Below, piece by piece: positions 5,019 through 64,000 of a stretch of 64,000 nt of DNA. The position numbers were made by a program, and so were the translations under genes. Under the pieces are notes generated by a model that saw nothing but the letters and a program-made list of their open reading frames with translations, had not been told where the DNA came from and did not search any database. Origin of the DNA: Eremomyces bilateralis CBS 781.70 (taxonomy: Eukaryota > Ascomycota > Dothideomycetes > Eremomycetales > Eremomycetaceae); contig NW_022985082.1 in the NCBI RefSeq assembly GCF_010015585.1, positions 487,150-551,149 of the forward strand, written 5' to 3'. How positions within the stretch are numbered: position 1 is the first letter of the stretch; each line of letters opens with the position of its first letter.

Positions 5019-5912
5019 CGACATACTCGACCATGATCAGCGACGAAATTGGAGCGGAGGAGGGGTGGCAAGAGCTATAGATTGTGTATATCTGTGTACT
5101 CTATAGACGAACTCGAAGTTCAACCACATTTCGCTCGACGGACCCATATTGTGCAACATAGGGCCTTGCCCACGTTCTTGGGCGTGGTTCCATCTCCATT
5201 TGGTGTCTTTCAATGCCACCTCGATCGAATATGTGACCTGGATTCTGTCGCTAGGTGACATCCTCCGCTGCCGACGGGATTCTCAGCAAGGAAGCTGAGA
5301 ACCACGATAACGGAGATGGTGAACGCCACACTAGGCTCTCCAAGTCGCTTCGGATAAGAAATGGGCAATCATTGCTCCATGTTCACATGCCTTGCGTACT
5401 AGGTAGGAGATGAATATCAGATATCAAATAGTGAGGGATGTCGCAAGTGATTGAGTGGCTAACATCAATGTGAAGATGGACACAAGAGTACATGTAAATT
5501 CGCCGAGGACTCCATAGTTAGCCCAGTAACACCAAGGCATGTAATGTTCAGGAATCTAAAATTCTTCGGACAATAGATTATCTGGTCCGAAATCAGGGTG
5601 AATATGGCTTGACTTGGACAGAACTAATTACCTCCTCACCACCGTATAAATCAAATCGAATCGAAGCCCGACTGCCTGAAACATCTACTGTACCGTACAG
5701 CGCAACCTGACAAGCCCAGCCCCACGCCTGACGCCTGAGACGCCGAACGCCACTTTCTTCGACATCATCCATCACCCTGACATAACCACTCATAAAAACA
5801 TTGTAATATTGGACAACTACTCCGCCTTTCAACCGATTCAAAGATTGTCCTTGAAATCTCCCATATTCCCATGGAGCCCGTCACACACGGTTGAACTTTA
5901 CAGGTGGTCGAT
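5019..5912. other. Intergenic between qcr9 and ubr1
   Basis: About 890 bases with no gene recognised. TTTACAG at 5897-5903 just before the ubr1 start looks like a splice acceptor, so the ubr1 leader may contain an intron. Confidence 0.5.
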
Positions 5913-8900
5913 ATGTCGTCCTCGGACGCTGAGAATCGGCTCTACCGCAGCCTGGGGCAACTTCCCGCGGCCCACGACAACCGATACTGCGAATCTGCAA
6001 CGCAGCAACTCTTGGAGATACTATTCAGATCCTTAGCCGGCGACGATCCAAACTATCTTGGCTACTTCTTCCCTCCGACATCCAATCCCGCCGCCCTCAA
6101 ATGGAGTTTAAGAGCAGCACAGGGCGCCGTGGAAGGCGCGGAATACACGGAGGCCGCGCGCGGAACCGCCTGCGGACACATCTTCAAGGCCGGAGAAGCG
6201 TCATATCGGTGCAAGACGTGCACGAATGACGACACTTGCGTGCTATGCGCCAAATGCTTTGAAGCTTCCGATCACGAAGGACATATCGTGTATGTCTCTA
6301 TCTCACCAGGCAACTCTGGCTGCTGCGACTGCGGAGACGACGAAGCCTGGATTCACGCACCGCTCTGCAACATACACTCCCCGCTCCCAAACAGCGCTCC
6401 CGGTGCGAAGGCGGCAGGTAAGGCCAAGGAGTCGTCGGATTTACCGCCGTCCGTGGTAGAGGGGATACGCAGGACCATTGCGATCGCCTTCGACTACCTT
6501 TGCGATGTATTTTCATGCTCCCCGGAACAACTACGGCTACCTAAGACGCTTGAGACCGTTCAGACCGACGAGGTCCAGTCACGACTTTCCTCCCGATGGT
6601 TCCCCGACGTTCCTGGATGGAGCCCGAGCTACGAGGCATGCAACGAGTTCGCGCTGGTCTTGTGGAATGACGAGAAACACACAGTGGAAGACGTCAAAGA
6701 GCAGGTGGCGCGAGCTTGCAAGGTTTCCAAAAAAATCAGTTACGAGAAGGCGCTGGAAATCGATGACGTCGGCCGAAGCGTGATCATACATTCCTACGAA
6801 CTCAAGGACCTTCTCCGGATGGCGTCGATTATCGAGGAGATCAAACTCACCGTCACCGTACGATCGGCGAGAGACACGTTTCGCGAGCAGATGTGCGAGT
6901 TCATCATCAAGTGGATTTGCGATATCGCGGGCTGCAGCGCTGGGAATGACGCTCATATCCTCCGGAATACCATATGTGAAGAGCTATTAAAGCCATGGAG
7001 AACAGGAAGTAAGGCACATCACGCATATATTGGAAAAGATGGGATCGATGATCACGCAAGCGAAGACAACCTAGAAGAAGAGCTTCGAGGTGGCTATGCA
7101 TCTCGAGCACGCATTGTTAGGATGGCACAGCAGTTAACTAGAACAGGGCAGGGCCACGTCATCCAAATCGCGGGCGGCGCACAAATCATCCTCGGAGAAG
7201 CGCATGGCCTGCTCGAAGAGTTGGAGGCCGAGAACGAAGACCGAATGGACGTGGACCAAGCCGATACCGGAGAACGAGAAAGCGATATCGATGTCGATAC
7301 ATCGGATGGACTCGAAGACCCGTCGAGGACAGTTGGACCGGTCGATTCAGTCGTGCATCCAGCCAGACGGGGCTCTGCACTCCCTTCGATGACGCCGAAT
7401 CCCCGAAGAGGGAGAACATCCAGTGTTCCGATGCCACTTGATGTCCCAAAGACGCCCAGGCCGGTACATGCCAGCGGTGGGAAGCCAATGCCTCCTTCAT
7501 ACTGGCTGGAGAAACCAGCTGGCTACGGGCGGCAACCCGAAGTCCCTATTGAGGAAGACCTCTGGCAGAGAGTTCGGTTGGATTACTTGATCCTCTACGA
7601 TTTGCGGATGTGGAAGAACTGCCGGATCGACGTGCGAGATGTCTTCATTAGCACCGTGGTCACCCTTCCTTATTTCAAGCGGTTGATGGGTCTTCGATTT
7701 GCCGGACTCTACACCCTCCTTGCGCAGCTCTACCTGATTGCGGATCGCGAACCCGATCATTCGATCATCAATTTATCACTGCAGATGCTCACCACCCCGT
7801 CCATCACCGCGGAAATTGTCGACCGAGGCAATTTCTTATCGAACCTGATGGCAATCCTCTACACGTTCATCACTACCCGACAAGTTGGATATCCATCCGA
7901 TGTGGACCCCAACGCTATTCTTTCGCTGGAGCAAGGCACCGTCACGAATCGCCGGATCTACCACTTCTTCATGGACATGAAGTACATGATGAACTCTAGC
8001 CTGGTTCAGAGCCTCATCCGAGACAATCCGCAGTATTTACTGCAATTTTTGGATCTCGTCAAACTCCATCAGGGAATCGTCCCCAATGTCCGAGCGCTGG
8101 GAGAGCATGTCGAATTCGAACCGGAGACGTGGATCAGCGCGTCCATCATCACGAGAGAGATGAACCGGCTGTGCCGTCAATTCGCTGAATCCTTCTGCTG
8201 GAGACCGGGCGGTGACAAGGGACCGATCCGCCGCGCGATCCGAGAGACGGCCAAGGTTGTGATCATCAATTCGATAGGAGCGGAGCGAGCGCGGTTCGTC
8301 CAGTCCGAGATCACCAGTCCCGTGCGCTTTGACGTCTTCCCTCTCTCCGAGTTCCATCTCCAATACGACTCCGACAACCCCGTCGGCTTTCGAGTCGTAC
8401 AGTACGATGTCGGTAAAGAGCCGATGAGTTTCCATCATGCTCTACACTACACGTTCTCCTGGCTCGTCGACCGCGCCAAATGCATGGACAACGAGGAATT
8501 CCGTGCGTGGATCGATTTCACCGCGCAAGACCTCCGCGCGGCGCCCTCACCTCCGAACGCGAATATCCCGGATTTTGTCCCGCATGACTATCTCCTGGCC
8601 ATGTTCGACTTCCCACTGCGCGTCTGCGCATGGTTGGCGCAAATGAAAGCCAACATGTGGGTGCGCAACGGCGTGACGCTCCGCCATCAAATGCAGACCT
8701 ACCGAGGCCACACGCAGCGAGACTTGGCGTATCTCCGAGATATCTTCTTATTACAGCTCGCGCTCGTCGTCTGCGATCCGCAGATGTTCCTCGCGACCAT
8801 GGTCGATCGATTCGACCTTCGTGACTGGGCCATGGGGAATTTCGGGACGATCAAACCCGATCGCGACGAGCTCCAGATGCTGGAGATGGCCGAGGAATTC

Positions 8901-11900
8901 GTTCACCTGCTCATCGTGCTGTTGATCGAGAGGACGTTCCTTCTTCCCATTGAGAATCCGAAGGAATCCCACGTCATGGGAATGCGCCGTGACATTGCGC
9001 ACATTCTCCTCTTCCGACCCTTGTCGCATTCGGACATCACGCAACGCATGTCCGAGAAGGTCCAGGACTCCGACGAGTTGGCGGACTTGCTCGACCAGAT
9101 GACTCAATATAAAGCCCCCGAAGGAGTGTCGGATGTCGGAACCTTCGAGCTCAAGAAAGAATTCATCGCTAAAATCGATCCGTACATTCCACAATACACC
9201 CGCAATCAGCGGGAAGAAGCCGAGAATATCTACAAGCGGTACATGGCGGAGAAGACTGGTACACCGGTCGAGGAAGTCGTATACGAGCCCAATCTCCTGC
9301 CTTTGGAATCTGGCATCTTCAAAAACCTAGCGCACTTCACGAAAACCCCCATATTCATTCAGATCATCTTCTACTTCCTGGAGCTATCGCTGGTGTACAA
9401 GGTCGAGATGACGAACATTTCGGCGGCGAAGATGGAGGTATTCCTCCAATTCGTACTCACGTTGATCCTCATTGCTGTCAACGAGGACCACGACGGAAAT
9501 GGATTCGTGGTTCCTGCATTGTATGCGTACTCCGAGTATTCCGACTATCGCCCGGATACCAAGATCATCTCGGCATTGCAATCGATCCTGGCGTCGAAAC
9601 GGTACGAGGCGTGTGCTCCCAAAATTCGGCTGATTTTGAAGCGGATGAAGGAGAAGAAGCCAGAGGAGTATGCGGAGTGTTTGGAATCCCTCGGCTTGTC
9701 GTCGCCGCTTTTGGACCCCTCCGAGCTTCACCAAAATTCGGGCGAGGCCGACAAGGAATTGAAGAAGAAGCAAGCCCTCGAACGCCAGGCGAAAATCATG
9801 GCGCAATTCAAACAGCAGCAGAACAGCTTCGTTCAAAATCAGACCTTCGATTGGGGAGAAGAAGATTTCAGCGACCTGGACGACGATTTCGAGAAGGTGG
9901 AAGCGGAGGAGACGGAGGAGGTTCGAAAATTCCCCACCGGTACATGCATCATGTGCCAAGAGGAGACCAACAGCGACCGCCTCTACGGAACCTTCTCGTT
10001 CATCTCCGAAAGCAGCATCCTACGTCAGACGCCCGCGTTGGATATGGACTGGATCGAGGAAGTCCGCGATACGCCCATCAGCTTGGATCGGTCCGCGGAG
10101 AGCATCCGCCCGTTCGGCGTTGCCGGCAAAAACCGCCGCACCGTCGAGAAATTTGACGCCGACGGGAACGTCACGATCACGGAGCGGCAGGAATTGGCGA
10201 AAGGGTTCCCATCGAACTATACCCGCCGTGGGCCAGTCGCGACAGGTTGTGGCCACCTGATGCATTGGACATGTTTTGAAGATTACTTCCAGGCGACCCA
10301 TCGGAGACACCTGAGCCAGGTCGCACGGCTCCATCCGGAACGGCTGGATCTGGGGGAATTCGAATGTCCGCTCTGCAAGGCGTTGGGAAATGCGTTCCTT
10401 CCCATCATTTGGAAGGCGCAGAAGGTGACGCAGGTGGGACAGGATTCCACCGATCTAAACGATTGGGTTGTGAATGCACTTCCGCAGTACCTGGCAAGGG
10501 GCTTCCGGGAGGAAGAGACCACGCTCACCAAGAAGCTGGATACGGTGTCCAAGGCATTGCAGCAAGAGGACACCTTCATCAAATACGGGTCTCAGGAGTT
10601 TGCCGGTCCAGTGTCCTCAAGGTTGGCAGATTATAGCACCTACACCGGCCCGATCGTGCAGCAAATCGCGTTACCCGATCCTACCACCGGACAACTCTCG
10701 CATGCATTCCATATCCTCTCCCCCACGCCTTCTGGTCCGTTGGACGCTCTGAGAAGCGTTCCCGTGTATCCGCTGCTGGAGCTCAATCGGGCATATATCC
10801 GACTCAACACCACGTTGCGGTTAAACAACATCCCTTCTCGATATGCGCTGCACTCCATGCGGCCGACGGAGGCCCTTCCAAACACCGATGCGCTCATGCG
10901 CGCTGTGGGATTCTCCATTTCCGCTGCGGAAATCGCTCAACGAGGCGTGGAGTCGAGTCCGGGAGCGACACTACTCGAGAAGGTACCCGAGCAGACGTTG
11001 ATACACTTACGCATCGTGTCGGAAACCGTCAAATCCTACATTTCGCTCGGCTGCATCCGCAGCGAGACGTCGCCCATCACCAGCAAGGAGTACACGCAGA
11101 CCGTGTTTCGACAACTCCAACTCCTCTTCCCTGCACGGCCAGAACTCGGGAACGATGTCCCCGCCACACGAGGCCTTGACACCCTCTTGGGCCAGGATCC
11201 ATTCATCTTCCTCACCGAATGCGCTTTTGGTATCGTCCCCGCACTGAACATCGATCTGCGTGTCGTTATGCGATTATGCTATCTCGCGGAAATGGTTCGA
11301 GTCATCCTCGCCTTCATGCACCGAACCGTGCTGCCGAAGCATCATGTCCAGTTCTCGGATTCGCAACGGTGGACGAAGCAACCGACCAGGCCCGCTGAAG
11401 CGCGCAGTTTCCTCAAGTTCTATAAGATTGTTTCGAAAGCGCTGTTTCCGACCGGTCCGGCGCCGTCGGACTGGGATCTATCGTCTGTCGAGGGTATGAC
11501 GCCATTCATCTACTCCATGATGGCGACATACATGCTCCCGTTCTTGCGGAAGTGCATGATCCTCATGAATGTCAAATTCGCCACGGAATTCCCAATCGTG
11601 GATTCAGGTGCGGACGAGCCGGAGCTGACAAGGCTAGAGAGAGCGCTCAATTTCCCGAGCATGTATGAAATCACCCTGGATGTCATCGGCAACTCGGAGA
11701 ACCCAACCCATAGCGACGAGCCTCTGTATGGGATCGTTCGTAGCTGGATCAAGCATTACCATGAGGAGTGGGCGGATAAGGTTATCCCGGTGGCGCCCGC
11801 CCCTTATCCCAAACCATCGCCGGTCATCCTCGCTCACCCTGCCATTTTCGAACTCATCGGTCTTCCTCGGATCTACGATACCTTGACCGTCGAGGCATTT

Positions 11901-12407
11901 AAGCGGAACTGTCCCACCACTGGACGATACATGACCGACCCGGTCGTGTGCCTGCTCTGTGGCGAGATATTCTGCAGTCAGGCCGTCTGCTGTCTGTCTG
12001 AGCGGAAGCCCGGATCCCGTGAGCGCCGTGGCGGATGCAACCAGCACCAAATCAAGTAAGTTTAACACCCCGAGCAATCCCACCATCCATCCAGCCGCTA
12101 ACCCCCGTTCTTCGCTAGGTGCGGCGGCACCACCGGCATGTACATCAACATCCGTAAAGGCATGGTGATCCTCCTCAGCACGCAGCCCGAGCAGCAGGGC
12201 ATGTCGATGGGCTCCTGGGCAAACGCGCCGTATCTCGACAAGCACGGGGAAGCGGACCCGACCCTCCGCCGCCATCATCAGCTGTTCCTCAATCAGAAGC
12301 GATACGACGTGCTGTTCCGCCAGCTGTGGCTGAACCACGGGATCGCGAGCGCGATCGCGAGGAAGTTGGACTCGGAAAATAGCAATGGGGGTTGGGAGAC
12401 CACGTGA
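5913..12407 (+). CDS. ubr1: Ubr1-type N-recognin, E3 ubiquitin ligase of the N-degron pathway
   Basis: Two exons, 5913-12055 and 12119-12407 (63-nt intron with GTAAGT donor), give 2143 residues, normal for fungal Ubr1. The start is the first in-frame ATG (5913). Domains in order: UBR box at ~86-157 (CGHIFKAGEASYRCKTC, then GCCDCGDDEAW), which binds type 1 N-terminal Arg/Lys/His; ClpS-like domain at ~246-295 (FALVLWNDEKHT), for bulky hydrophobic N-termini; a long helical middle; RING-H2 at ~1345-1490 (CIMC, GCGHLMHWTCFEDYF, CPLC); and the C-terminal UBLC cap at ~1975-2143, with further Cys residues (CLLCGE, CSQAVCC). Without the short second exon the protein would lose most of the cap, so the splice is well supported by frame continuity (QHQIK joins CGGTTGMYI). 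It works with an E2 of the Rad6 class. Confidence 0.95.
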
Positions 12408-13167: not shown

Positions 13168-13262
13168 TGGACTAACAGCGAATTGAACACTGGACCTCCC
13201 CCATTCGCGCTCGCTCGAAGCGAGTATGCTAAGGGGGCGCTCTACCACTGAGCCACAAGCCC
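13168..13262 (-). tRNA. tRNA-Ala (anticodon AGC) with a 23-nt intron
   Basis: Read on the minus strand from 13262: acceptor GGGCTTG, D arm GCTC..GAGC, anticodon stem CCCCC/GGGGG with loop TTAGCAT, T arm CAGTG-TTCAATT-CGCTG, acceptor TTAGTCC and discriminator A. The A-box (TGGCTCAGTGG) and B-box (GTTCAATTC) are good. The intron, 13204-13226, lies between positions 37 and 38, the canonical place for nuclear tRNA introns. The G3:U70 pair, the identity mark for alanyl-tRNA synthetase, is present. The acceptor stem has one U-U mismatch (6:67) and a second G-U pair (7:66), so reduced function or decay is possible. Confidence 0.85.
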
Positions 13263-13976: not shown

Positions 13977-13982
13977 TATATA
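13977..13982 (+). promoter_or_regulatory. TATA-like box upstream of mini-ORF 1
   Basis: TATATA, about 173 bases before the ATG at 14155. The intervening sequence is pyrimidine- and CA-rich like a fungal leader. Confidence 0.35.
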
Positions 13983-14154
13983 GCGTAAGAGTGTTCCAAA
14001 TCTTCCTTATTTTCGTTGTGAAAGTACTAGAACACTCTGCCAAATCATCACCATCATATTCCCATTACCCCCTGAGTCTCGGGTTTCTTTTTGCGCGCCA
14101 CCTACCAACTCAGCGGCCAACAAGAACTTCATTTGGCCTAGGATCCAAAGCAAA

Positions 14155-14304
14155 ATGTGCGAATATAGAGGAGGTCAACGGATCTTGGACTGCAGCAGCC
14201 CTTTTTGCCCCGATTCTGTCTATTACCGGCCACAGCCCGAATATCGTGGGCCACAGCAGTCCTTTTTGCCCGGATTCCATATATTACCGGCCACGGGTGG
14301 ATAA
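14155..14304 (+). CDS. Mini-ORF 1: small protein with D-C-x4-C-P-x-S motif
   Basis: A 49-residue single-exon frame starting MCEYRGGQRILDC. It shares with mini-ORF 4 the start Met-Cys and the segment GQ[RK]I[LA]DC, and then carries DCSSPFCPDSVYY. The second half comes from a diverged tandem copy of the motif region: in another frame the bases around 14252-14288 again encode SSPFCPDSIYYRP, so the protein may originally have had two copies of the motif. No signal peptide or membrane segment is seen. No known family is recognised. The resemblance among the small frames of this array is what supports coding; alone it would not be called. Confidence 0.4.
   Translation: MCEYRGGQRILDCSSPFCPDSVYYRPQPEYRGPQQSFLPGFHILPATGG
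14200..14300 (+). repeat. Diverged tandem duplication inside mini-ORF 1
   Basis: Two copies of about 50 bases, each containing CAGCAG[CT]CCTTTTTGCCC and ATTACCGGCCAC, lie head to tail. They are in different reading frames relative to each other. Confidence 0.65.
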
Positions 14305-14456
14305 CGACGTGTTTCGGGTTTCCATGCTCAGACCAAAGGCGCGTTCTAGGAGCTATTGGTTAGGATATATTTTGAGCTGCGGGCGCCCTACATAGTCATG
14401 TAATAATTCATTCTAATAAGACATGAGATAAGACCTGGCATCTTCTACCCTACTTG

Positions 14457-14463
14457 TATATAA
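14457..14463 (+). promoter_or_regulatory. TATA-like box upstream of mini-ORF 2
   Basis: TATATAA, about 263 bases before the ATG at 14726, farther than in the other members; a leader intron or another promoter is possible. Confidence 0.25.
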
Positions 14464-14725
14464 CTTGTGCTAGAAGACATGTGAAATGGGACCCAGTCAT
14501 CACCGTTACTTATTCATAGTCAGCGTTCTTCCCATTCAACCAACTTTATTCCTGTTATAGGTTGCTTGAACATACTACTACTGTCGATTTTTCTATCAGT
14601 ATTAAGAGGATTCATTCAACGTCTACGGCAAATCCCAACATTGATAATAGATTTATCTCTTCATAGGTCTCCATTCTTCAGGACGCCCTCTAACCATATC
14701 ATCGATCCTCTTTGCATGCGGCAAT

Positions 14726-14851
14726 ATGGCTGTAATACTTGAATCCTCTGATTCAACGATCAATTCGTGTACGTTCGACGAGAGCAGCACGAAGACCCAA
14801 GACTGCTTTTGTTCCGTTTGCCCCTACTCAATCATGAGGGGCCCAGATTAA
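14726..14851 (+). CDS. Mini-ORF 2: small protein with D-C-x4-C-P-Y-S motif
   Basis: A 41-residue frame ending in the motif segment TQDCFCSVCPYSIM just before its C-terminus. The N-terminus (MAVILESS) resembles that of mini-ORF 3 (MAYFFESG). The stop is followed one base later by another ATG (14853) that opens about 19 codons and then a consensus donor (GTGAGT, 14910) with an acceptor near 14964, but the spliced frame soon stops. No known family is recognised. Coding is inferred from shared residues with its neighbours. Confidence 0.4.
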   Translation: MAVILESSDSTINSCTFDESSTKTQDCFCSVCPYSIMRGPD

Positions 14852-15036
14852 CATGGAAAATCCGACTGTGATCAATCTCCTCCGCATAGGCTCTGAGGCG
14901 GACTTTATTGTGAGTAACAAAATCCGGGCCGAATAGTCATAGCTAATATTGCATGGCAATGCAGGGACACGGAGCGGATTCGTGACCCCAAGATGATACA
15001 AAAGACCCTGACTGGAATATTATCCAATGAGTCAGG

Positions 15037-15043
15037 TATAAAA
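15037..15043 (+). promoter_or_regulatory. TATA box of mini-ORF 3
   Basis: TATAAAA with a CCAAT pentamer (15024-15028) just upstream, 129 bases before the ATG at 15166. This is one of the best-formed promoters in the array. Confidence 0.45.
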
Positions 15044-15165
15044 ACCCCCCATCGCCCAAACGAAGCCACCGAAAACCGGGTTCTTCTTCAAGAACCTCTC
15101 TGTTCTACCTATCTTGCTTTACAAGCATCATCCCCATCAGCTAAGATACCGACCGACAACCCCAA

Positions 15166-15330
15166 ATGGCTTATTTTTTCGAATCAGGCGCATACCTGGT
15201 CGACCCCTACTTTCAGGGTGCCAAAGAGGACTGCGATAATGGCAACTGCAAGCACTCGGATCACCAGAAGCCTGCTCAAAACGTGTCTTCAGAGAATACA
15301 ACGCGAGACAACGCTACAAAGGGTCCCTGA
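15166..15330 (+). CDS. Mini-ORF 3: small hydrophilic protein with D-C-x4-C-K-H-S motif
   Basis: A 54-residue frame in a good start context (CCCCAAATGGC). It starts MAYFFESGAYLVDPYF, then KEDCDNGNCKHSDH, and ends in a polar Asn/Thr-rich tail. The motif is D-C-x4-C-K-H-S, with Lys where neighbours have Pro. The clean promoter and start context make this the most gene-like member. No transmembrane segment or signal peptide is visible, so a cytosolic or nuclear protein is likely. No known function is assigned. Confidence 0.45.
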   Translation: MAYFFESGAYLVDPYFQGAKEDCDNGNCKHSDHQKPAQNVSSENTTRDNATKGP

Positions 15331-15995
15331 GCCAACAAGGGGTACGGATTAGAATATGTAGCCGTAGTCTCATCAATGCAAAAACACTCCACTTGAAGAT
15401 TAAATTTGCAAGATAGTCGCGGATGGTTGTTCTAAACCAAGACATACATATGTCCTGAAGTGTCTCTTTCCTCTGTTCAGCCGCCATGATCCTACCTTGG
15501 GGTACTCCATGGTCCACTGTTTTGCACTGAAACATGTAGACGACCACCCTTTCCCATCCGCCAATGGTTGGCATGAAACGAGGTCTGGCTTATGCCTTCG
15601 TGTCGATTATTAAAGTCCTTTACTCCCACGGTATAATAATTAAACCTTCCGATAACGAATACAACTCGGCTACCATGAGCAAGGCCATATATAATATTAT
15701 AGGGCTCTGGGGACAACTTACCATACTGAAGAGTAGGAGCAAGGAGACATTGATCGAGTGATGGGGGGCTACCAGGGCCTCCACAGTGAAGATATTGTTA
15801 ACCCTCTTGGTGATAGTACAATTTCACGAAAGGATCGACTCGAGTCGGTGTCGGGGAAAATATCCATACTTTCGACTGTCTTTGATTGGGTTCCGTTGAA
15901 TAAAGCAGGGCGCGTCGTATCTACACTCTTATTAAACTTTAACCAAATTGGTCGACTGACCACTAAATTAATGAATATTACTCATTTCTTGAGGA
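15331..15995. other. Intergenic within the mini-ORF array
   Basis: About 665 bases with no supported gene; moderately AT-rich. Confidence 0.3.
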
Positions 15996-16003
15996 TATAA
16001 ATA
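15996..16003 (+). promoter_or_regulatory. TATA box upstream of the frame at 16112
   Basis: TATAAATA, 116 bases before an ATG, followed by a CA- and CT-rich leader. Confidence 0.4.
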
Positions 16004-16111
16004 CGCGCTGACCACCACTGACTGCATCTAAAAAAAGTCATCCAACACACTAAGCTTTCGTCATACGCATACCTACAATAATTACTTAGGTATCTTCATC
16101 CAACATCTGAA

Positions 16112-16276
16112 ATGCCCCCTTCAGACAATACGCGATGCACCTGTGGTGTGAGACTCCCAACCGTCCCATGCCATGTTGTGTTCATCGAAGGCTTTAGACC
16201 TGAAGAAGAGCAATTCCAGTTCAGTTTGCTGACTAGAATCCGATGTGCGTACAACTTTATCGTTGTGAATCGCTAG
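16112..16276 (+). CDS. Possible mini-ORF (weaker member): small Cys-containing protein
   Basis: A 54-residue frame beginning MPPSDNTRCTCG, with PCHVVFIEGF, which loosely resembles CPHSILFIEF of mini-ORF 5, but the shared D-C-x4-C spacing is missing. Position, TATA box and size match the array; the sequence match alone is weak. It could be a diverged member or chance. Confidence 0.25.
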   Translation: MPPSDNTRCTCGVRLPTVPCHVVFIEGFRPEEEQFQFSLLTRIRCAYNFIVVNR

Positions 16277-16474
16277 GAACCTGTTGGTAGTTAAGGAAGA
16301 GTGGTGAGGATTCATACTGAGTCTTTAGTAGTCATGCCCCTGTCCTTCAGACTTCTGGCCATGGGACATGGTGATGCATTAATGAGGCATTATATCGATG
16401 TCTCTTTCTAGTAATATCGAACGCTCGTTGAGATTGAGCATTGAATCAGAATAATATAGCTTGTTCCCGGCAGG

Positions 16475-16482
16475 TATTTAAA
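16475..16482 (+). promoter_or_regulatory. TATA-like box of mini-ORF 4
   Basis: TATTTAAA, about 153 bases before the ATG at 16628. Confidence 0.35.
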
Positions 16483-16627
16483 GAAAGGGAAGGCCCCTTG
16501 CGGTAGCTAGTACTACAAACCAAAAGCTTTTTAAAGGAGTGTACACTGCATTCCAAATATCAGTTCACCGCCAGACGGAAGAAGCCACAGCAGGCCAACG
16601 ACGTTTTCTTACTCCCTGAACAACGTC

Positions 16628-16759
16628 ATGTGCACCTTGGACCAAGCAGGGCAGAAGATCGCCGATTGTGGGCAGTCCTGGTGCCCATATTCCGTGTGGT
16701 ACTCTCCTTTCGGCTGGGTATATAAACTTCAAAACCAGGATATTCCTCGCAAAAAGTGA
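16628..16759 (+). CDS. Mini-ORF 4: small protein with D-C-x4-C-P-Y-S motif
   Basis: A 43-residue frame. It begins MCTLDQAGQKIADC and continues GQSWCPYSVWYSPFGW, then a basic tail (RKK). Met-Cys start, GQKIADC and CPYSV align without gaps or with one gap to mini-ORFs 1 and 5. It is rich in aromatic residues after the motif. No known family is recognised. Confidence 0.4.
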   Translation: MCTLDQAGQKIADCGQSWCPYSVWYSPFGWVYKLQNQDIPRKK

Positions 16760-16983
16760 CATGACCGCTCTTACGCTGGCTTCAGTTGCAGGCGGTATTG
16801 GCAATAGATATCGGTAACGTGCGGCAAATCATGCAGGAACTGAACCGGAGAACGGGAGGATGCATTGTGTGTGACGGAGACGTACGATAGAGCAGCAGCT
16901 GACCTCGTTGGTCATACTAATATTTGCCAGAGTCAAAGAAATGCTCACCGGTTCAAGAAATGACTCTGGAGGAGTGGTTTGGA

Positions 16984-16990
16984 TATAAAA
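16984..16990 (+). promoter_or_regulatory. TATA box of mini-ORF 5
   Basis: TATAAAA, 215 bases before the ATG at 17199, followed by a CT/CA-rich leader typical of well-expressed fungal genes. Confidence 0.4.
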
Positions 16991-17198
16991 AGAAAGCGAT
17001 TATGCTCATGTTGTTCGAAGCATTTCAGTAACCAAACGCAGATCGACCATTCATTATCAGCGACCAACAACCAGACTCGCACTTGGTCACACGACCAAGA
17101 TCATTATCCTTCCTCCGCTCACGAGCCTCCCCCCTGACGCATCAACGACCGATACATTTTATCCACAAGACGACTTCCTCCGCTCTCCTTCTCTCGCC

Positions 17199-17300
17199 AT
17201 GTGCAAGCCACAGGCTACTGGCACACCGAAGCAGGACTGTTTCCAGCACACCTGCCCACATTCAATCCTCTTCATCGAATTTGTGGAATATGGTGTGTAA
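17199..17300 (+). CDS. Mini-ORF 5: small protein with D-C-x4-C-P-H-S motif
   Basis: A 33-residue frame starting MCKPQATGTPKQDC, then FQHTCPHSILFIEFVEYG. It aligns residue for residue with the start of mini-ORF 4: Cys2, Gly8, Asp-Cys 13-14, Gln16, Cys-Pro 19-20, Ser22. A GTAAGT overlaps its stop, but the only nearby acceptor would make a 37-nt intron, too short to trust, so the single-exon reading is kept. No known family is recognised. Confidence 0.4.
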   Translation: MCKPQATGTPKQDCFQHTCPHSILFIEFVEYGV

Positions 17301-18355
17301 GTGACCATTTCAACCGACACTCCTTGCTTGTAGGAATATGAAGCTAAGATTGGTTGTAGTGACAAAGTTAGCAAGTCATCAACGAAGATAGCTCAAGTGC
17401 TCAATGATATGATGAGTCAACTACAGCATATTAACTAGCTTAATATGATGAATGAATTGTATGCGGAGTGGACGGTAATGATGATGTACGTTCGACTGTT
17501 CTATGAACTACGAATTATGAACCACTGGAAAGTACTTGGACAACCTGAGAAAGGAAATCAAGTGCGGGACGGCCCGCCATTAGGGGCTTGGAGCCAAATT
17601 GCTGGGCGCTGGCGAGTGGCCAAGCGCAAAGCGGTTCATCATACAATTAGAATTTTCCCAATTTTCCACCGTCCATTGCAAGATTATGGTTTTTTACTTA
17701 AAATATTGTTCTTTTTATTGGGGATTGAATACTGGTCGTACGTTCAACTTCATTTGTTTGTACAAATACACGTAATGTAATATATATACAAGGCCGCCGC
17801 AATTACATGCTAGATTAAATATATTGGTCCCAGCCCTGTACGTATCGCACCAGCCGCCAGGTACTCTGAAGAGTATAAGGGTTATCAAAACCGGTTGCCA
17901 CTTAATTGCATTTGAAATACCTAAATGGAGAACCGATGAACAACAACGGTACTCGATGGCGGGATTCTCCTAGAAAGAGAAGGAGAGTCCTATTAACACC
18001 TGGGGAAGTCAAGATCCTTATCAGCTGTTCTTCTGCCTGGATACTAGAACATTTCGCTGAACGAACTTCTTGCCAACATGATGTAGTAATAAATATTATC
18101 CATAGAAACCCCATTATGAAAGTTCGATTCTGGAGTTCTACATCTGCTCACTACTGATGCGCCTGGTGCTATTAATTAAGCTCGTCGTCACCTCGCAAGT
18201 CCCACCAGCGGGCAGCCAGGAGAATCGTAACGGTGAGTAAAGCCAAGGCAACGAAAATGATAAATACTAGCTGCTTTATTAAATATAAGGTATCTTATGT
18301 ATCACATTCAAACTACGTCAGCTCAAATAAAATCGAAATGTCTAAAATCACAATT
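17301..18355. other. Intergenic, nothing convincing
   Basis: About 1.05 kb between the mini-ORF array and the end of the 2H phosphoesterase gene. AT-rich; small open frames exist but none shows conservation or promoter support. Confidence 0.4.
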
Positions 18356-63105: not shown

Positions 63106-64000
63106 ATGTCAGGCAGCACTCAACTCATTAGCGGTGTGTCCGCCAACCAGAATTCGCAGGTTGTAGCTGGCACTATCCATGGATCTGTGAACTTTGGGAG
63201 CAGCGAAAGTGAGAGTGCTTAGTTGGCTGTGGCCTCAAAGCAGCAGGAAGCTGACTGGCAATCTAGACTTGAACGATGTGCTCAGCTCCCTCCCCACCTC
63301 AGAGGACGCGCCGTTCAATACATACCAGCGACAACCCGACCCGGCCTGCCTTCCCGATGCCCGCGTTGATCTCCTTCAAAAGATCTACATCTGGGCTGAT
63401 GGCCGAGACGAGCGCTGTATTTTCTGGCTGAACGGCTTGGCCGGCACGGGCAAGTCGACAATTGCGCGCACTGTCGCCCGCAGGCGCTTCGATGAGCAGC
63501 AACTCGGAGCCAGCTTCTTCTTCTCGCGTGGCGGTAGAGATGTCAACCATGCAGACAAGTTCATCACGAGCATTGCGTGGCAGCTGGCGAACAACATACC
63601 CTCTCTCCACCAGCACATTTGCGATGCCATCATAGAGCGCCGCGACATTGCGAGTCAGTCCCTCCGCGACATTGCGAGTCAGTCCCTCCGCGACATTGCG
63701 AGTCAGTCCCTCCGTGACCAGTGGCAGCAGCTTATCCTACGTCCACTATTAAAGCTAGGTGAAAACGGCGGCCAGTCCTCGTACACGTCGTTGATGCGCT
63801 CGATTAGTGCGACGGTGACAATAATATCCGGATTATCATACACCTCTTGGCTGAAGCTCGATTATTAAAGACGGTTCGACTACGAGTCTTGCTGACCAGC
63901 CGATCTGAGATTCCAATCCGATATGGATTCCGTCAGCTACCGAATGCGAATCTCCAGGATATTGTACTTCACGGCATATCACCCTCAATCGTAGATCACG
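63106..64000 (+). pseudogene. Broken NACHT (NLR-type) receptor gene, cut by window end
   Basis: Exon 1 (63106-63208) encodes a 34-residue N-terminus with NQNSQVVAGTIHGSVNFG, similar in pattern to fungal RHIM-like/PP amyloid signalling motifs. A 58-nt intron (GTGAGA..CTAG, branch GCTGAC) joins it to exon 2 at 63267: SENLNDVLSSLPTSEDAPFN. The NACHT core follows: RVDLLQKIYIWADG, Walker A FWLNGLAGTGKSTIART, then LGASFFFSRGG. A 24-bp unit is repeated three times (63641-63712). Near 63780-63790 the frame shifts; similarity continues in another frame through the Walker B region (VVDALD), where an in-frame TAG replaces the expected Glu codon, and on to LLTSRSEIPIRYGFRQLPN and IVLHGISPSIVDH at the edge. 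The receptor is therefore probably inactive. WD or other C-terminal repeats lie outside the window. Confidence 0.75.
63641..63712 (+). repeat. 24-bp tandem repeat, three exact copies, in the NACHT coding region
   Basis: Units at 63641, 63665 and 63689 each encode RDIASQSL in frame. They are identical, so expansion is recent. Confidence 0.95.

What the first reader, a model, noticed from the sequence alone, without database searches (positions are those of the whole stretch)
14155..17300. Array of tiny paralogous genes with a shared D-C-x4-C-[PK]-x-S motif
Five short + strand frames in 3.1 kb (starts 14155, 14726, 15166, 16628, 17199; 33-54 residues) share D-C-x4-C-[PK]-[HYD]-S. Pairs share more: GQ[RK]I[LA]DC in the first and fourth, QDCF..xCP[HY]SI in the second and fifth, Met-Ala-x3-Glu-Ser starts in the second and third. 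A sixth frame (16112) is in register but weaker. Each has a TATA-like box 115-265 bp upstream. They lie below usual annotation size limits and match no family I know. Sequence pattern and promoters are seen; that they are expressed and related is inference. A small metal- or redox-linked peptide family is one possibility.
Basis: partly seen in the sequence, partly recalled or inferred. Interest (0 to 1): 0.78.

Follow-up and report, generated by a model that had tools for sequence, protein, structure and literature searches.

The report
Fungal tandem array of tiny genes
A stretch of what looks like a fungal chromosome carries four, probably five, very small related genes in a row, each with its own promoter-like box and most with three conserved cysteines, of no family that I could match; what they do is unknown, and binding through the cysteines is the likeliest guess.

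Summary
D-C-x4-C-[PK]-x-S occurs five times in the six-frame translation of the window, all in these + strand frames; 60 dinucleotide shuffles average 0.05, maximum 1. Without using the motif, of 33,217 pairs among 259 ATG frames of 30-60 aa, the best three and four of the best five are pairs among frames 1, 2, 4 and 5. Between these four, codon positions 1-2 stay alike while position 3 is near the level expected from composition. Leaders are poor in G and mostly ATG-free, with TATA-like boxes upstream. So these are most likely real, anciently duplicated coding genes of a fungus. Frame 3 is a probable, diverged member: a profile of the other four misses it. Frame 16112 is unrelated in sequence. 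No convincing family match in Pfam, NCBIfam, PHROGs, PDB, viral contigs or prokaryote genomes; no fungal genomes were searchable, so conservation between species is untested, and so is expression. The products show no obvious signal sequence and do not fit metallothioneins. An intracellular thiol- or metal-binding peptide family is my best guess; that function is inference only.

The parts
14155..14304 (+). g1: 49-aa frame, MC...GQRILDC-x4-CPDSVYY; core member
   Evidence: pair with g4 ties for first of 33,217; left-out profile E 0.008, modest, but the best-scoring frame outside the training set
14726..14851 (+). g2: 41-aa frame, CTFDESSTKTQDCFCSVCPYSI; core member with an extra Cys (CxC)
   Evidence: pairs with g4 and g5; left-out profile E 1.2e-5
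15166..15330 (+). g3: 54-aa frame, EDCDNGNCKHS; probable but diverged member, lacks the first Cys
   Evidence: not found by the profile of the other four (E 41); pairwise p 0.002 with g5, 0.048 with g2 anchored
16112..16276 (+). g6: 54-aa frame with similar leader features but no sequence relation to the family
16628..16759 (+). g4: 43-aa frame, MCTLDQAGQKIADCGQSWCPYSV; most typical member
   Evidence: left-out profile E 7.4e-11
17199..17300 (+). g5: 33-aa frame, MCKPQATGTPKQDCFQHTCPHSI; core member; a GTAAGT donor at 17297 overlaps its stop, so it may be longer when spliced
   Evidence: left-out profile E 5e-6; several candidate acceptors
14243..14294 (+). second copy of a 52-nt piece of g1 (14182-14233), spacing 61 nt, 83% identical, in another frame; reads SSPFCPDSIYYRP
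   Evidence: its frame scores E 1.9e-4 against the five-sequence profile, which contains g1 itself
13977..13983 (+). TATA-like box upstream of g1 (-178)
14457..14463 (+). TATA-like box upstream of g2 (-269)
15037..15043 (+). TATA-like box upstream of g3 (-129)
15996..16002 (+). TATA-like box upstream of g6 (-116)
16475..16481 (+). TATTTAA box upstream of g4 (-153)
16984..16990 (+). TATA-like box upstream of g5 (-215)

Best explanation
A tandem family of four to five real, very small protein-coding genes on a fungal chromosome. They arose from one ancestor by old duplications, lie on one strand and have separate promoters. Each makes a peptide of about 33-54 residues (g5 perhaps longer if spliced) without an obvious signal sequence, with a conserved N-terminal head of about 25 residues (in four of five C-x10-11-D-C-x4-C-P-x-S) and a free, fast-changing tail. 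Supported here by sequence statistics: relatedness and coding constraint of g1, g2, g4 and g5, and gene-like leaders. Inferred: expression, an intracellular site, and function. The mechanism I think most likely is that the conserved thiols, with the Asp, bind a metal ion or pair with a thiol partner; the head is the working part and the tail tunes the partner. Separate TATA-type promoters would suit induction by stress or development. I put about 0.85 on real related genes and about 0.3 on the thiol or metal mechanism; the score is for the whole.
For: Motif 5 of 5 in the array, shuffle mean 0.05. Motif-free pair ranks 1, 2, 3 and 5 of 33,217. Left-out profiles find g4 (7.4e-11), g5 (5e-6), g2 (1.2e-5) and g1 (0.008), each the best frame outside its training set. 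Codon positions between g1, g2, g4 and g5: identity 0.48 / 0.53 / 0.35 at positions 1 / 2 / 3 against 0.26 / 0.25 / 0.29 from composition; 32 of 57 same-residue comparisons use different codons. No long DNA repeat joins the units; the only repeat over 26 nt is inside g1. Starts have 9-19 G in the 100 nt upstream against a mean of 22.8 at other ATGs (p 2e-4), and for 5 of 6 starts the nearest upstream ATG is 139-230 nt away (p 0.004 for six, 0.010 for the five family frames). No strongly hydrophobic N-terminal stretch.
Against: No transcript, ribosome or orthologue data. Synonymous codon preference is only mildly gene-like: the five rank above 28-32 of 35 background frames. g3 is not found by the profile of the other four. 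g1 carries a duplication with 61-nt spacing that shifts its frame. Long ATG-free leaders are not unique: 13 other ATGs of 101 in 12.5-18.3 kb also have 110 nt or more, and g2 has an out-of-frame ATG 10 nt upstream. Boxes at -215 and -269 are far from the starts. Three shared Cys are few for a four-ligand zinc site in one chain, and g3 lacks one. AlphaFold gives no confident fold. The alignment was made on residues, which favours positions 1-2.
Confidence: 0.5

Rival explanations
1. The frames are first exons of longer spliced genes; splicing removes the apparent stop and adds a second exon.
For: A consensus-like donor (GTAAGT, 17297) overlaps the stop of g5; the scan listed 10 candidate introns with donors at 17297 or 17293, among them 17297-17371 (scored highest together with 17297-17391) and 17297-17359, which would add about 21 or 25 residues. 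By eye, a weaker GTATAT donor in g4 could lead to a frame ending in a CxxC.
Against: Donor and branch weights were recalled, not trained. The scan listed no intron for g1, g3, g4 or g6 at its cut-offs, and for g2 one that would remove the motif. The candidate second exons of g4 and g5 are not alike (p 0.37), and translations downstream of the heads show no similarity above shuffles (best 37, shuffle median 34).
Confidence: 0.25
2. The genes are metallothionein-like metal buffers.
For: Small, no obvious signal sequence, cysteine-containing; g2 has D-C-x-C-x2-C-P, which resembles the ends of some fungal metallothioneins (recalled, not tested).
Against: Cys content is 4-10% and only one CxC occurs in the five peptides; no Pfam match of that kind.
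Confidence: 0.15
3. They are decaying remains of a formerly larger or functional family.
For: The frame-shifting internal duplication in g1, the diverged g3 and mild codon bias.
Against: Four heads keep their residues while third positions drift, and leader features look gene-like.
Confidence: 0.15
4. They are precursors of modified peptides or secreted effectors.
For: A conserved head with a variable tail, in an array.
Against: No signal-like stretch by hydropathy; no peptide-modifying enzyme domain seen in the 35 window frames scanned with Pfam, which are not all frames of the window.
Confidence: 0.07
5. Chance similarity among random short frames.
For: The motif was picked after reading; the loose form DC-x4-C occurs 10 times in the window, 5 of them outside the array.
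Against: The motif-free ranking and the left-out profiles.
Confidence: 0.02

Closest known systems
Fungal metallothioneins (features recalled)
   Same: Tiny, cysteine-bearing, no obvious signal sequence; g2 has a D-C-x-C-x2-C-P run
   Different: Far fewer Cys and only one CxC in five peptides; aromatic residues present; shared head C-x10-11-DC-x4-CP-x-S
Small proteins of unknown function in Aspergillus fumigatus conidia (PMC3424117; abstract and the section on dormant conidia read)
   Same: Precedent that very small fungal proteins, many of them without assigned function, can be abundant
   Different: No sequence comparison was made. The named examples Grg1 and ConJ have orthologues in other fungi, and the section says only one third of the conidia-enriched proteins lack homologues beyond close relatives
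Thioredoxin-like TXD17 family (PF06110)
   Same: g4 residues 8-24 align weakly around SWCP (E 0.058)
   Different: 13.5 bits against a cut-off of 23.1, 17 residues only; none of the other peptides matches

Membership tests
Fungal metallothionein | High Cys content with repeated CxC/CC motifs (recalled) | tested here: not met
   Cys 4-10%, one CxC in five peptides
Fungal metallothionein | Binds Cu/Zn/Cd through thiolates | not testable with these tools
   needs the purified peptide
TXD17-like thioredoxin (PF06110) | Reaches the Pfam cut-off over the domain | tested here: not met
   13.5 bits vs 23.1; profile positions 28-43 of 119
Secreted small cysteine-rich protein or effector | N-terminal signal peptide | tested here: not met
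   Best 12-residue mean hydropathy near the N-terminus 0.13-1.27 for the five; a crude measure, no dedicated predictor was available
Ribosomally made modified peptide precursor | Modifying enzymes close by | tested here: inconclusive
   None seen in the 35 frames scanned with Pfam; many frames not scanned
The array as one gene family | Members more alike than other short frames of the window | tested here: met
   For g1, g2, g4, g5; g3 weak, g6 not met

The most novel reading that the evidence does not exclude
The peptides are substrates or ligands of the N-degron ubiquitin ligase UBR1, whose gene is the nearest large gene identified upstream. Three of five start Met-Cys, so removal of Met would expose an N-terminal Cys that could be oxidised and recognised, making the array a set of redox- or oxygen-timed microproteins in a fungus.
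Probability: 0.03. Interest if true: 0.85.

Novelty: new member of a known kind. Interest (0 to 1): 0.4.

Why it matters
If expressed, this is a protein family below usual annotation size limits, found as a tandem array from sequence alone. It would suggest that arrays of related micro-genes can be missed in fungal annotations, and it gives a simple thiol motif that can be tested.

Tried and rejected
Prokaryote and viral relatives: alignment A2 (g4 and g1 only, two of the five) in viral contigs (26 pattern matches, none confirmed) and in GTDB genomes (38 matches, none confirmed); UBR1 in viral contigs, to see whether related fungal contigs are held there: no pattern match. RNA element: Rfam shows only a tRNA, and four of the six leader regions, folded with their starts, are not more stable than shuffles (z from -0.89 to 2.14). 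Second-exon similarity: not significant. Structure: one AlphaFold job, no confident model, so no fold search was run. Shared upstream word TAGTCAT: 4 of its 7 window copies lie upstream of g1-g4 on the + strand, but it was chosen after looking. Substitution pattern in the g1 duplication: 3 synonymous and 4 residue-changing codons of 17, too few to weigh. Literature: eight answered searches, of which I saw the listings; none lists an evident description of this motif, for five spellings of it, found 0 papers. The library holds only PMC papers under CC0, CC BY and CC BY-SA, so this is not proof of absence.

Full report
What the window is. Pfam matches point to a fungal chromosome: a UBR1-type N-recognin at 5904-12059, a protein kinase, a DDHD protein and a Fungal_trans regulator, a Mago-binding protein, Bles03, an alpha/beta hydrolase and an NPHP3_N protein. 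That it is a filamentous ascomycete is my inference. No genome is held for it, and the collections at hand hold prokaryotes, viruses and plasmids. The positive evidence below therefore comes from within the window.

Is the pattern real? The five frames and the quoted sub-motifs are present. The strict motif occurs five times in six frames of 64 kb, all in the array; 60 dinucleotide shuffles gave a mean of 0.05 and a maximum of 1. Looser forms are less special: DC-x4-C occurs 10 times in the window, five of them in the array, against a shuffle mean of 3.15 and maximum of 7. To avoid the choice of motif, I aligned all pairs of the 259 ATG frames of 30-60 aa, leaving out pairs whose starts lie under 200 nt apart (33,217 pairs left): g2-g4 and g1-g4 tie for first (score 69), g2-g5 is third (57) and g4-g5 fifth (52); the fourth (53) is a pair from elsewhere. 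Profiles built without one member find g4 (7.4e-11), g5 (5e-6), g2 (1.2e-5) and g1 (0.008), each as the best-scoring frame outside the training set; g3 is not found (E 41 with the profile of the other four). g3 is therefore a probable member only: local p 0.002 with g5, 0.045 with g1, 0.11 with g4 and 0.26 with g2, and 0.048 with g2 in a start-anchored alignment. g6 at 16112 is not a sequence relative.

Are they coding? Between g1, g2, g4 and g5 the aligned heads are 48%, 53% and 35% identical at codon positions 1, 2 and 3 (159 codon pairs), against 26%, 25% and 29% expected from composition. Of 57 same-residue comparisons 32 use different codons. Shuffles of the codons reach the observed identity of positions 1 and 2 in none of 5000 trials. 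The alignment was made on residues, which helps positions 1-2, and g3 was not in this count. The only repeat over 26 nt in 13.0-18.3 kb is the one inside g1; other listed pairs are short and two-copy. So the duplications look old and the residues kept. Synonymous codon preference is only mildly gene-like: the five rank above 28-32 of 35 background frames, and above 23-32 when all codons count.

Promoters and leaders. A TATA-like box lies within 116-269 nt of all six starts; I did not test box placement against a null. Nine of the 19 + strand copies of TATA[AT]A[ATG] in the window lie in 13.0-18.3 kb, against 4 on the minus strand of that stretch. For five of six starts the nearest upstream ATG is 139-230 nt away; g2 has an out-of-frame ATG 10 nt upstream, itself 230 nt from the next. 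One-sided p is 0.004 for six starts and 0.010 for the five family frames, but 13 other ATGs of 101 in 12.5-18.3 kb also have gaps of 110 nt or more; of those 13 only one starts a frame of 30 or more residues (12716). G is low in the 100 nt upstream (9-19 against a mean of 22.8, p 0.0002). g6 shares these features, so it may be another small gene of different descent.

Anatomy. The shared head of g1, g2, g4 and g5 is C-x10-11-D-C-x4-C-P-x-S; in g1, g4 and g5 the first Cys is residue 2. Sequence after the heads shows no similarity above shuffles. g5 may be spliced from a GTAAGT donor at 17297, with several possible acceptors. g1 holds a 52-nt direct repeat at a spacing of 61 nt; the second copy reads SSPFCPDSIYYRP in another frame, and that frame scores 1.9e-4 against a profile that contains g1 itself.

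Function. Pfam gives only a sub-threshold match of g4 to PF06110, NCBIfam only one of g6 at 0.075, PHROGs only one of g3 at 0.23; the PDB sequence search gives none. AlphaFold on g4 with five sequences gives mean pLDDT 52 and pTM 0.19. There is no obvious signal sequence by hydropathy. With reduced intracellular thiols, binding of a metal or of a thiol partner is the simplest reading, but it is inference (about 0.3). A link to UBR1 through an exposed N-terminal Cys is a long shot: three of five peptides start Met-Cys, but g2's equivalent Cys is internal and g3 has none.

Precedent. PMC3424117 (abstract and the section on dormant conidia read) reports small proteins, many without assigned function, as prominent in Aspergillus fumigatus conidia; its abstract calls them lineage-specific, while the section says only one third of the conidia-enriched proteins lack homologues beyond close relatives. 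No sequence link was tested.

Verdict. A real, small tandem gene family, possibly lineage-restricted (untested), new only in the sense that no library at hand describes it. Expression and function are open.

Noticed in passing
14182-14294: 52-nt direct repeat inside g1 with a spacing of 61 nt, which puts the second copy in another frame while its residues still match part of the family head.
   Followed up: partly
13168-13262 (-): tRNA gene with an insertion near the anticodon loop, found by Rfam but not by ARAGORN.
   Followed up: no
5904-12407 (+): UBR1-type N-recognin; a frame at 12138-12404 after its stop has gene-like codon use and may be its last exon.
   Followed up: partly
63640-63718: 3.3 copies of a 24-bp repeat, 98% matching, inside a frame with an NPHP3_N match.
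   Followed up: no
13956, 14393, 14934, 16329 (+): TAGTCAT occurs upstream of the boxes of g1-g4, always on the + strand; the other 3 window copies are on the minus strand.
   Followed up: partly
28791 (-), 29628 (+), 34706 (-): Three other short ATG frames score well against each other (53, 51, 44); possibly a dispersed repeat or low complexity.
   Followed up: no
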